A stretch of DNA of 64,000 nucleotides, taken from a virus. This document shows, one piece after another, positions 53,713-56,548 of the stretch; positions within the stretch are counted from its first letter, which is position 1; every line of letters starts with the position of its first letter. The stretch is from IMG/VR virus record IMGVR_UViG_3300021404_000006, positions 1-64,000 of that record. One strand, given 5' to 3'. The position numbers and the translations under genes were made by a program. The notes beneath the pieces were generated by a model. The model did not search any database and was not told the DNA's origin. It saw nothing but the letters and a program-made list of their open reading frames with translations.

Positions 53713-53907
53713 ATGGCCTCAGTAAACATAGCAGGGCTTCAGGTGGACCCCATCAAGGTGATCAGCATCCTCAAGACCAGGCTGGCTGAGGAACAAGCTA
53801 AGTCCGCGCTCCTGGAAGCGGCATTGCAGGATTACCAGGAGCGCGAACAGCAGGCCCAGGAACAGCAGGTCCAGGTCGTCCAGGAGCAGGTTCCGGGTCA
53901 GGAATAG
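53713..53907 (+). CDS. 64-residue coiled-coil protein
   Basis: Starts 2 nt after the previous stop. VDPIKVISILKTRLAEEQAK then a Gln/Glu-rich coiled coil. Its 3' end overlaps the convergent gene by 10 nt. Possibly virion-associated. Confidence 0.65.
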   Translation: MASVNIAGLQVDPIKVISILKTRLAEEQAKSALLEAALQDYQEREQQAQEQQVQVVQEQVPGQE

Positions 53908-54758
53908 TTCTTGTCCGGCGGGAAATACCGGATAAGCAGTTCCTGGTCGGTGAAGATCTTGGCGCTCGGGTAGCGCGCAGACAGCATTCCTTCTATTTCC
54001 GATACCCTTGTGACCAGTTCTGCCTCCGAGCACTTATCGAAAGAAGGCGGTTGTTTATGCGTGGGTCCAAGAACGGTAGGGCTCTCCTTGTAATGTATCC
54101 ACCACTGGAGCTGCTGAACCGCCGCTTGCGGTATGCAGAGCCCCATTATTTCGGCATACTGGCACCGGAAGCCTTTTTCTCCGATGATCACGCGGCCGGT
54201 CCCCTTGATTACCCCGAACACGGGGATCGCCGCTGCCCAGGAAAACAGCCTAGGCGTGTAGCCGTCTACGAAAGAGAGCACTTCGTCTACTCTAAGGCCC
54301 TGGTTGAAGTATCCCCAGAATCCGCAGCCGCATGCCACTCTGGTCTCCGGGGGCTTGTGAATCGTAGGGGGCTTATTCATGACGAACGAGTAGAAAGGAC
54401 TCTCTGACGTACAGGTGGCTTCCATCCTGCCGTCTTCCCACTCCTGATTATGGGCTCCGTTGAGTACGCAGAGATGCCTGCCTGTCACAGTAGTCCTCGG
54501 CGGGCAGTCCAGGTAGCCGGCCATCTCCGGCGTGATAGGAAGGTACCACCAGCGGTACCCGTATACCTGGCCCATGGCCGTGTCCCATTCTTCCGGGGCA
54601 CCGCGCTCAGAGTAACCGGGTAGTCCCGAGTACGGAATACGCTTGTCGCTCACAGCTTTCGCGGCCTTGTCTGCCGGAGTCTTGGTATTAATGGTGAAAT
54701 ATGTGCCCGAGGTGGAATTCGTTCCGGACGAGCACAGTCTCCGTAGAAGTTCTAGCAT
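53898..54758 (-). CDS. unknown protein, paralogue A
   Basis: 286 residues. Shares with the next gene the blocks SERGAPEEWDTAMG, CGCGFWGYF, VFGVIKGTGRVIIGEKGFRCQYA and PDKNY. Cysteines in ACGCGFW and CTSES could bind metal. Similar proteins with a CGCG-W motif occur in actinomycetes and their phages with no known function, to my recollection. The leftward direction separates it from the tail operon, suggesting a non-structural role. Confidence 0.7.
   Translation of the reverse strand: MLELLRRLCSSGTNSTSGTYFTINTKTPADKAAKAVSDKRIPYSGLPGYSERGAPEEWDTAMGQVYGYRWWYLPITPEMAGYLDCPPRTTVTGRHLCVLNGAHNQEWEDGRMEATCTSESPFYSFVMNKPPTIHKPPETRVACGCGFWGYFNQGLRVDEVLSFVDGYTPRLFSWAAAIPVFGVIKGTGRVIIGEKGFRCQYAEIMGLCIPQAAVQQLQWWIHYKESPTVLGPTHKQPPSFDKCSEAELVTRVSEIEGMLSARYPSAKIFTDQELLIRYFPPDKNYS
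54571..54612. repeat. 42-bp direct repeat, copy 1
   Basis: Identical to 55586-55627. Both encode ERGAPEEWDTAMG in the two paralogues. Perfect DNA identity over a stretch whose surroundings have diverged points to recent gene conversion or very strong constraint. Confidence 0.85.
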
Positions 54759-54780: not shown

Positions 54781-55638
54781 CTAATGACGGCCTCCGTAGT
54801 TCTTGTCCGGCTCGCAGTTCCTCATTAGTTCCCCCGGGGTGTCATGCCATTTGAAATTTGCGCCCAGGGACATAGTTATTGCTGCGTAGATAGTTTCCCG
54901 CACCAGAGTGTCCGGCACTGCGAGTGTCCTCGACAGGAATGCTGCTACGGGCTGCTCTGTATCGAGGAAAGTGCTTTCGTTGATGAGGAACAGAGACATA
55001 GACAAGGGATCTCCGACACGAAACGCGTCTTCTATGCATACGCCTGTTTCCTCCTCGAATATGCATCCTCCGGAGATAGGCATGGCAAGGTCAGTGATGC
55101 GTGCCCGCTCTACCCTGAATCCCTTGTCTCCGATAATGGCAGCGCCTGATCCCTCGATAACTCCTGACAGGGGAACTGTTACTTCGTAGCTGCCGTTACT
55201 GAATTTCTTCACCCATATCTTCTGGGCGTCGAATTCAGTCATGCTCTGCGCTTTCCAGTACGCCCAGAAACCGCAGCCGCAGCCCGGGTACGGGGGCCTG
55301 TGCACTTGCACCTGCGCGGGCAGAAGGTCTGAAGCCGGAGTTATTGCACAGCTGCGAGCACAGCTCGCCCCGTACCATCCGCTGTGCATGCGCTTGTACG
55401 ACCACCGGCCTCCGTACATTCCCTCTACGAATGCATGGCTCAGCCACGGGAGAACCGGAGCGGAATAGTAATTCCGCTTCTCGCCCCAGCCGCTGGCAAG
55501 CAGAGAGGTTCCGTAGTACCTTGTCACATCAGCCGGACAGCGCAGGGGAAGGCGCAGCGACCAGCTGCGGAACCCCCGCACGGTGCCCATGGCCGTGTCC
55601 CATTCTTCCGGGGCACCGCGCTCAGAGAAGCCTTCCAC
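54781..55638 (-). CDS. unknown protein, paralogue B
   Basis: 285 residues with SERGAPEEWDTAMGTVRGFRSW near the start, CGCGFWAYW near 125, VPLSGVIEGSGAAIIGDKGFRVERA near 165-190 and PDKNYGGRH at the end. The start is GTG, 2 nt after the 56-residue gene's stop. A 42-bp stretch is identical to paralogue A, although the proteins are otherwise diverged. Confidence 0.7.
   Translation of the reverse strand: MEGFSERGAPEEWDTAMGTVRGFRSWSLRLPLRCPADVTRYYGTSLLASGWGEKRNYYSAPVLPWLSHAFVEGMYGGRWSYKRMHSGWYGASCARSCAITPASDLLPAQVQVHRPPYPGCGCGFWAYWKAQSMTEFDAQKIWVKKFSNGSYEVTVPLSGVIEGSGAAIIGDKGFRVERARITDLAMPISGGCIFEEETGVCIEDAFRVGDPLSMSLFLINESTFLDTEQPVAAFLSRTLAVPDTLVRETIYAAITMSLGANFKWHDTPGELMRNCEPDKNYGGRH
55586..55627. 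repeat. 42-bp direct repeat, copy 2
   Basis: Second copy of the element at 54571-54612. Confidence 0.85.
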
Positions 55639-55811: not shown

Positions 55812-55866
55812 TTAGTCCTCCTTGCGAGGTTTGCGTACCTTCTCACCGGGCTCCAACAACCCTACT
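55812..55866 (-). pseudogene. displaced 3' end of the HTH gene
   Basis: Reads GLLEPGEKVRKPRKED then stop in the frame expected of the HTH gene end. It is separated from the rest of that gene by the HNH insertion and has no start of its own. Confidence 0.65.
55827..55860. repeat. 34-bp direct repeat flanking the HNH gene, copy A
   Basis: Matches 56307-56340 at 31 of 34 positions. All three differences are synonymous in the LLEPGEKVRKP reading on the minus strand. Confidence 0.85.
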
Positions 55867-55884
55867 GTTCCCTGTATTCCCCCG

Positions 55885-55896
55885 TACACTGAAGCT
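55885..55896 (+). promoter_or_regulatory. leaderless -10 box for the inserted HNH gene
   Basis: TACACT (55885-55890) with 6 nt to the GTG at 55897, the same box and spacing as at 2088-2099. Confidence 0.5.
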
Positions 55897-56421
55897 GTGA
55901 GCGAGAAGACCGTACGAACATGCACAGTACCTGGGTGCTCGCGCAAATATTTCTGCTCAGGCTACTGCTCCGGGCACTACGAACGCGTGCTGAGGACTGG
56001 GAACCCCGGTACCGCGCGGCTTCGCCGGTATGGAGGCAGTAAGACCGGCACCTGGAACGGCTACGTGCGAGTGTGGGACACCGAGACGAAGCAGCAGATG
56101 CCTGAACATCGTCTAGTAATGGAACATACGATCGGCCGAAGGCTCTTGCCTCATGAGACGGTGCACCACAAGAACGGAATCAGGACGGACAATCGTCCGG
56201 AGAACCTGGAGCTGTGGTCCAAGTCCCATCCCGCTGGCCAGCGTGTTGAAGACAAGATCTCTTGGTGCCGAGAATTCTTGGCGCAGTATGGCTACTCCGT
56301 ATCCTTAGGTTTGCGTACCTTCTCGCCGGGTTCCAACAGCAAGTCTTCCGGGCCAATCCCCAGGGCGGTGTACAGCCTGCGGAACGAGGACTGGCCGGGA
56401 GACACGCGTCCCTGCTCGTAG
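55897..56421 (+). CDS. HNH homing-type endonuclease inserted in the HTH gene
   Basis: Up to 174 residues. A zinc-finger start (CTVPGCSRKYFCSGYCSGHY) is followed by RVWDTETKQQMPEHRLVMEH and HHKNGIRTDNRPENLELW, the HNH site. The natural end is probably near QYGYSVS (about residue 136). The frame then runs antisense through the HTH gene to 56421, so the original stop seems lost at the junction. Flanked by 34-bp near-identical repeats. Confidence 0.82.
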   Translation: MSEKTVRTCTVPGCSRKYFCSGYCSGHYERVLRTGNPGTARLRRYGGSKTGTWNGYVRVWDTETKQQMPEHRLVMEHTIGRRLLPHETVHHKNGIRTDNRPENLELWSKSHPAGQRVEDKISWCREFLAQYGYSVSLGLRTFSPGSNSKSSGPIPRAVYSLRNEDWPGDTRPCS

Positions 56422-56531
56422 GAACAGATCGAGTCATAGGACAGGCGCGTGGCCTCGGCCAGCTGAACGCGGTCCATTCCTCGCATGTGCCGCCAGTATC
56501 TGAGCTTTTCCGGGTAGATGCGAACTCCCAT
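56292..56531 (-). CDS. Cro/CI-type helix-turn-helix protein
   Basis: 79 residues. MDRVQLAEATRLSYDSICSYEQG (about 19-41) is the XRE HTH, and FRRLYTALGIGPEDLLLEPG the usual following helix. The C-terminus KVRKPKDTE differs from the displaced remnant KVRKPRKED, so the last residues were rewritten at the insertion. ATG 56531 has TACAGT 5 nt upstream on the minus strand. A regulator, possibly of the divergent release-factor gene. Confidence 0.8.
   Translation of the reverse strand: MGVRIYPEKLRYWRHMRGMDRVQLAEATRLSYDSICSYEQGRVSPGQSSFRRLYTALGIGPEDLLLEPGEKVRKPKDTE
56307..56340. repeat. 34-bp direct repeat flanking the HNH gene, copy B
   Basis: Partner of 55827-55860; this copy supplies the working 3' end of the HTH gene. 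Confidence 0.85.
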
Positions 56532-56548
56532 GCTGTACTGTACCTCGC
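56532..56548. promoter_or_regulatory. 17-bp divergent leaderless promoter pair
   Basis: Plus strand: TACTGT (56536-56541), 7 nt to the ATG at 56549. Minus strand: TACAGT (complement of 56537-56542), 5 nt to the ATG at 56531. The two -10 boxes share five bases of a near-palindrome. Confidence 0.6.

What the first reader, a model, noticed from the sequence alone, without database searches (positions are those of the whole stretch)
55812..56531. HNH gene inserted with a recoded duplicate of the target gene's 3' end
An HTH gene on the minus strand ends LLEPGEKVRKPKDTE. About 480 bp away, past a plus-strand HNH gene, the same stretch recurs as LLEPGEKVRKPRKED, followed at once by the next gene's ATG and containing its SD. 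The 34-bp repeats match at 31 positions and all three changes are synonymous. The simplest reading is that a mobile HNH cassette entered the gene's end and brought, or recreated, a recoded 3' end. The target stays functional, is no longer cut, and the downstream SD is preserved. This differs from introns, inteins and ordinary freestanding homing genes.
Basis: partly seen in the sequence, partly recalled or inferred. Interest (0 to 1): 0.75.

Follow-up and report, generated by a model that had tools for sequence, protein, structure and literature searches.

The report
HNH cassette replacing a gene's end
In this phage a small selfish DNA-cutting gene sits at the end of a regulator gene, supplies that gene with a working new end and pushes the old end aside; two other phages show the same trick with strongly recoded ends, which suggests natural 'cut-and-rescue' cassettes in phages.

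Summary
A 34-bp stretch of a minus-strand HTH gene recurs at 31/34 positions, 480 bp away, past a plus-strand HNH gene. All three differences are synonymous, and no such repeat appears in shuffled windows. Three relatives (L002, L083, L085) lack the HNH gene and have one HTH end abutting or overlapping the next gene. The distal copy is therefore the displaced native end, and the proximal copy plus KDTE* is the replacement. KDTE* is read antisense to the HNH gene's 3' end.

Of ~153 related HNH loci, two others show the layout clearly. In Gordonia phage Kabocha, an 812-bp HNH insert supplies a terminase 3' end changed at 18/57 bases (15/15 altered codons synonymous) and displaces the native end, 56/57 identical to sister phage Gray. 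Phage ChisanaKitsune, without the HNH gene, carries a single-switch mosaic of both ends, an apparent excision scar. Contig L162 shows a 5'-end version in a polymerase gene.

In this window recoding is slight, so simple target duplication remains possible, and cleavage is untested. Closest known: fungal mitochondrial mobile endonuclease ORFs that carry gene C-termini. Verdict: new variant of a known kind, apparently undescribed in phages.

The parts
56292..56531 (-). HTH regulator gene (79 aa), now with the replacement 3' end
   Evidence: HTH_31 31.8 bits at residues 9-63; syntenic homologs L002, L083, L085
56307..56340 (-). proximal copy of the repeat: in-frame replacement end LLEPGEKVRKP
   Evidence: 31/34 to the distal copy; keeps the L002 state at both informative sites
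56292..56306 (-). new last codons KDTE* of the HTH gene, encoded antisense to the HNH 3' end
   Evidence: relatives end TKED* (L002) as the displaced copy does
55897..56421 (+). HNH endonuclease ORF (174 codons); homology-supported part about 55897-56306, last 38 codons read the proximal repeat and HTH antisense
   Evidence: HNH_3 and phrog_20891; relatives end 2-8 residues after YGYxV; AlphaFold2 pLDDT ~85-90 over the core, <50 for 138-174
55861..56306 (.). 446 bp between the two copies; the unit added to the empty site is 480 bp
55827..55860 (-). distal copy: displaced native HTH 3' end
   Evidence: followed by RKED*, matching TKED* of L002; joined to the gene body it gives an intact 79-aa HTH
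55812..55826 (-). native last codons RKED* with the Shine-Dalgarno AAGGAGG (55823-55817) of the next gene
   Evidence: sequence; AAGGAGGACTA shared with L002
55641..55811 (-). next gene of the operon (56 aa), start codon right after the displaced HTH stop

Best explanation
A compact freestanding HNH homing-type cassette inserted into the last ~15 codons of the HTH gene. The unit added is 480 bp: a replacement HTH 3' end (LLEPGEKVRKPKDTE*) plus an HNH gene on the opposite strand, the two overlapping. The native 3' end, with the SD of the downstream gene, was pushed to the far side as an untranslated remnant. Most likely working: the HNH protein cuts the empty allele near the end of the gene; repair from a cassette-bearing genome installs the HNH gene together with the replacement end; the junctions (and in Kabocha and L162 the recoding) keep the occupied allele from being cut; and recombination between the two copies can delete the cassette cleanly. 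Shown here: the insertion, the end replacement, the displaced native end, and for Kabocha the recoding and an apparent excision scar in a sister phage. Inferred: cutting, homing, immunity, and retained HTH function.
For: Three relatives have one HTH end abutting or overlapping the next start codon and no HNH gene there. The end of the nearest, L002 (TKED*), matches the distal copy. The reconstructed empty site is a relative-like operon. HNH catalytic residues are intact and the core is modelled with confidence. Same layout in Kabocha: clean 812-bp insertion at GACGCACT^CAGCGG with no native base lost, in-frame terminase end changed at 18/57 bases with 15/15 codons synonymous, displaced copy 56/57 to Gray. 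ChisanaKitsune end: 8 new-type then 10 old-type diagnostic sites, one switch, no HNH gene. L162: HNH gene between an old and a recoded copy of the first ~31 codons of a family-A polymerase. Precedent in fungal mtDNA (PMC3630166).
Against: In this window the copies differ at only 3/34 bases, and the proximal (new) copy is the one closer to L002 (25 v 23 of 33), the reverse of Kabocha and of the fungal cases. A plain duplication during insertion followed by drift fits as well. HNH orientation is opposite to the gene, unlike Kabocha and L162. No donor or second occupied genome was found. No cleavage data.
Confidence: 0.62

Rival explanations
1. The HNH gene inserted and the 34-bp target was simply duplicated in the event (for example staggered nicks filled in, or illegitimate one-sided break repair). 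The two copies then drifted apart; the new HTH tail is accidental antisense read-through of the HNH end.
For: Copies 91% identical; the distal copy carries the derived state at both informative sites; KDTE* is antisense HNH sequence; the HNH gene lost its own stop at that junction. Illegitimate break repair at microhomology is described for phage T4 (PMC2988022).
Against: All three differences are synonymous (chance 0.016-0.06). Kabocha, the resolved case, shows a clean insertion without duplication of native DNA.
Confidence: 0.33
2. The two copies are remnants of tandem paralogous HTH genes with an HNH gene between them, the second paralog largely deleted.
For: HNH genes of this family do sit between tandem paralogous genes in L010, L012, L013 and L024.
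Against: All three relatives have a single HTH gene. No convincing HTH homology upstream of the distal 34 bp (p = 0.09-0.19 against the window's own HTH, 0.03-0.06 against L002, uncorrected for several tries).
Confidence: 0.03
3. [quoted passage not shown]
For: HNH genes often ride in introns.
Against: The HTH frame is complete without splicing; no Rfam match; the insert folds no better than shuffles (z = +1.8); the HNH gene is antisense to the host gene.
Confidence: 0.01
4. Chance or assembly artefact.
For: Single contig from a metagenomic virus record.
Against: No such pair in shuffles; both junctions lie in open, conserved genes; independent cases in cultured phages.
Confidence: 0.01

Closest known systems
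Fungal mitochondrial mobile ORFs with carried gene C-termini (Allomyces atp6; Glomus atp6, atp9, cox2, nad3; PMC3630166)
   Same: Order core - new C-terminus - endonuclease ORF - displaced native C-terminus; in the reported cases the ends differ mostly by synonymous changes; gene product largely preserved.
   Different: LAGLIDADG or GIY-YIG enzymes in mtDNA, same strand as the gene, longer ends (51 to a few hundred bp). Here HNH_3 in a phage, opposite strand, 34 bp + 4 codons, little divergence. Kabocha is the closer match.
Freestanding phage homing endonucleases (T4 seg and mob genes; PMC2988022)
   Same: Intronless HNH gene with occupied and empty alleles; transposition-like insertions into coding sequence are known (mobE in nrdA of Aeh1).
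   Different: Those insertions split genes into pieces; no carried replacement end is described in that review (no mention of duplicated ends).
Integrative elements using attB in a gene's 3' end (e14, phage 21 in icd; from own knowledge)
   Same: Element restores the gene with its own variant of the 3' end and displaces the native end.
   Different: They need an integrase and excise site-specifically; no integrase in the 480-bp unit.
Synthetic home-and-rescue gene drives (from own knowledge)
   Same: Nuclease plus recoded, uncuttable remainder of the target gene.
   Different: Engineered CRISPR designs in animals; here a natural phage arrangement.

Membership tests
Mobile endonuclease ORF carrying a gene end (fungal mORF type) | Endonuclease ORF lies between a replacement end and the displaced native end of one gene | tested here: met
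   also Kabocha and L162
Mobile endonuclease ORF carrying a gene end (fungal mORF type) | Displaced end matches close relatives while the in-frame end is the divergent, recoded one | tested here: inconclusive
   Window: last codons match L002 in the displaced copy, but within the 33 nt L002 is closer to the in-frame copy (25 v 23). Met in Kabocha.
Mobile endonuclease ORF carrying a gene end (fungal mORF type) | Endonuclease on the same strand as the gene | tested here: not met
   HNH plus, HTH minus; met in Kabocha and L162
Mobile endonuclease ORF carrying a gene end (fungal mORF type) | Mobility shown | not testable with these tools
   Only presence/absence in relatives
Freestanding homing endonuclease gene | Intact nuclease motif and fold | tested here: met
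   HNH_3 above cut-off, invariant H90 H91 N93 N99 N103, model
Freestanding homing endonuclease gene | Related genomes with an empty site | tested here: met
   L002, L083, L085
Freestanding homing endonuclease gene | Cuts the empty but not the occupied allele | not testable with these tools
   needs protein
Group I intron or intein | Self-splicing RNA or protein | tested here: not met
   HTH frame complete
DNA transposon with target-site duplication | Transposase and terminal inverted repeats | tested here: not met
   Only an HNH ORF in the unit; no terminal inverted repeats

The most novel reading that the evidence does not exclude
A natural class of phage 'cut-and-rescue' cassettes exists: HNH_3 homing genes fused to a recoded copy of the remaining 3' or 5' end of the very gene they enter (HTH regulator, terminase, DNA polymerase). 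They insert at a point without loss of native bases, keep the gene product unchanged, and are lost later by recombination between the recoded and native ends, leaving codon-mosaic scars such as that in ChisanaKitsune.
Probability: 0.6. Interest if true: 0.78.

Novelty: new variant of a known kind. Interest (0 to 1): 0.64.

Why it matters
It explains how a selfish nuclease can sit inside protein-coding sequence, even in an essential terminase or polymerase gene, without an intron or intein and at no apparent cost to the gene. It gives a natural counterpart of engineered home-and-rescue gene drives, a source of sudden synonymous patches in phage genes, and, in Kabocha, Gray and ChisanaKitsune, three cultured phages in which gain, occupied state and loss can be tested at once.

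Tried and rejected
Direct-repeat and six-frame scans of HNH loci gave further hits that are adjacent paralogous tail genes (L010, L012, L013, L024, L140, L148, L156 and others), not gene-end duplications; those beyond L010, L012, L013 and L024 were judged from the matched peptides only. Cluster F mycobacteriophages (Jabbawokkie, Soul22, Renaud18) have an HNH gene abutting a convergent HTH gene, but the HTH genes there are exchanged whole and no repeat exists. HTH homology upstream of the distal copy: not convincing. Breakpoint from uneven divergence to L002 on the two sides of the insert: third positions 0.62-0.65 v 0.48-0.51, but the same gradient exists between other pairs, so inconclusive. 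Degenerate-DNA search for the peptide end in other viral contigs: none. Bacterial genomes: only remote HTH matches in Blautia. Solved structures: no match. Terminase donor of the Kabocha end: not found. Nearest phage relatives of L162: none. Four further phage HNH loci (L212-L215): no duplicated ends.

Full report
What is there. The window is bases 1-64000 of a 118,922-base virus record. On the minus strand an operon runs HTH gene (56531-56292), a 56-aa gene (55811-55641) and two paralogous genes of about 285 aa. Between the HTH gene and the 56-aa gene lies a plus-strand HNH gene. The repeat is as reported: 34 bp, 31 identical, spacing 480, three synonymous differences. Shuffled windows give no such pair.

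Which copy is old. Three related contigs keep the same order with no HNH gene at this point: L002 (HTH 81% over 75 residues, 77% overall), L085 (58%) and L083 (59%). In each, the HTH stop lies against or across the next start codon. L002 ends VRKPTKED* with AAGGAGGACTAG, which matches the distal copy, VRKPRKED* with AAGGAGGACTAA. So the distal copy is the native end, and the in-frame end ...VRKPKDTE* is the replacement. Crossing the two copies in silico restores a 79-aa HTH gene followed directly by the next ATG.

Anatomy of the insert. HNH relatives of the same subfamily end a few residues after YGYxV. The window's ORF reads YGYSVS, then enters the proximal repeat and continues 38 codons in all through HTH antisense to 56421. 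The AlphaFold2 model is confident over the core and disordered from residue 138. The new HTH codons KDTE* are the antisense of HNH codons GYSVSL. HNH gene and replacement end therefore overlap, and the unit is only 480 bp. The tail lies outside the HTH domain (residues 9-63), so HTH function is probably kept (inference). The SD of the next gene survives in the displaced copy, but coupling of that gene to HTH translation is lost (inference from gene order).

Search for the same layout. About 153 distinct HNH loci were scanned, from two viral scans plus phages, first at DNA level and then by six-frame comparison, with shifted windows as control. Most hits are paralogous tail genes. Two are not. 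In Gordonia phage Kabocha (OP867022, L118) the terminase ends LSGAFAEAAFARRGRLLA*, then comes the HNH gene, then a second copy ISGAFAEAAFARRGRLLA*. Against sister phage Gray (MK279853, L208) the sequence is identical up to GACGCACT and again from CAGCGG: an 812-bp insertion without loss of native bases. The in-frame end differs from Gray at 18 of 57 bases, 15 of 15 changed codons are synonymous, and 0 of 20,000 random placements preserved the protein. The displaced copy is 56/57 identical to Gray and still overlaps the next start. Phage ChisanaKitsune (MZ820089, L209) has no HNH gene there. Its terminase end shows eight new-type sites followed by ten old-type sites, a single switch. The simplest reading is loss of the cassette by recombination between recoded and native ends; partial gene conversion is an alternative. 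In L162 an HNH gene lies between a truncated old copy of the first 31 codons of a family-A DNA polymerase and a heavily recoded new copy, with the HNH stop overlapping the new start. No empty relative of L162 was available.

Mechanism. The common plan is a nuclease gene joined to a substitute for whatever part of the gene lies beyond the insertion point. I think the nuclease cuts the empty allele there (inferred), repair copies the cassette, and the substitute keeps the gene whole while breaking or altering the cut site. For Kabocha the recoded end must have been carried by the insert, because native sequence is intact on both sides. For the window it is less certain. The copies are 91% identical, and the nearest relative sides with the in-frame copy at both informative sites, so duplication of the target during insertion plus drift is a serious rival (0.33). 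Three of three synonymous differences has a chance probability of 0.016-0.06, which is weak support for two coding histories.

Known parallels. Beaudet et al. 2013 (PMC3630166) describe core - inserted C-terminus - endonuclease ORF - native C-terminus in Glomus mitochondria, and compare it with the earlier Allomyces atp6 case. That is the same plan with other nuclease families. The T4 review (PMC2988022) records homing genes inserted in coding sequence that split genes, and illegitimate break repair at microhomology, but no duplicated ends. SegB amplification (PMC13096335) shows a homing gene losing its 3' end at a microhomology junction. Nine literature searches in the held open library found no phage case; subscription papers are missing, so absence is not proven.

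Verdict. Observation confirmed; interpretation partly supported; new variant of a known kind. The phage cases Kabocha, Gray and ChisanaKitsune are the best material for a test.

Noticed in passing
L118 (OP867022.1 6401-9793), 1181-1237 and 1994-2050: Gordonia phage Kabocha: terminase 3' end synonymously recoded beside an HNH gene, native end displaced downstream; sister phages Gray, Hanem and Chidiebere lack the HNH gene.
   Followed up: yes
L209 (MZ820089.1), terminase end 682-738: ChisanaKitsune terminase end is a single-switch mosaic of recoded and native codons with no HNH gene: apparent excision scar.
   Followed up: yes
L162, 2756-3505: HNH gene between an old and a recoded copy of a DNA polymerase A 5' end; HNH stop overlaps the new polymerase ATG.
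   Followed up: partly
L121-L127: Cluster F mycobacteriophages: the slot next to a tail-region gene holds interchangeable HTH genes with HNH, GIY-YIG or other neighbours, a hot spot for HTH and nuclease exchange.
   Followed up: partly
L083, 6974-7618: A different HNH-type gene (plus strand in the locus) stands where the window, L002 and L085 have the RF-1-domain gene, next to the same HTH gene.
   Followed up: no
53898-54758 and 54781-55638, minus: Two paralogous ~285-aa genes with no Pfam or PHROG match and, for the one searched (53898-54758), no hit in sequenced phages; both conserved in L002 and L085.
   Followed up: partly
56533-56544: Palindrome-like CTGTACTGTAC between the divergent HTH and RF-1-domain genes, shared in part with L002 (GTACAGTACAG): possible operator of the HTH protein.
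   Followed up: no
1-165: Tandem array of a 12-bp unit (AGAGCCATAGGC, about 14 copies) at the very start of the record.
   Followed up: no
about 96057-96083 and 96619-96645 of the record (L092 14057 and 14619): 27-bp repeat TACTGTTTTGTTTCCTGCGGGTAAACT (89% identical) on both sides of a minus-strand gene.
   Followed up: no
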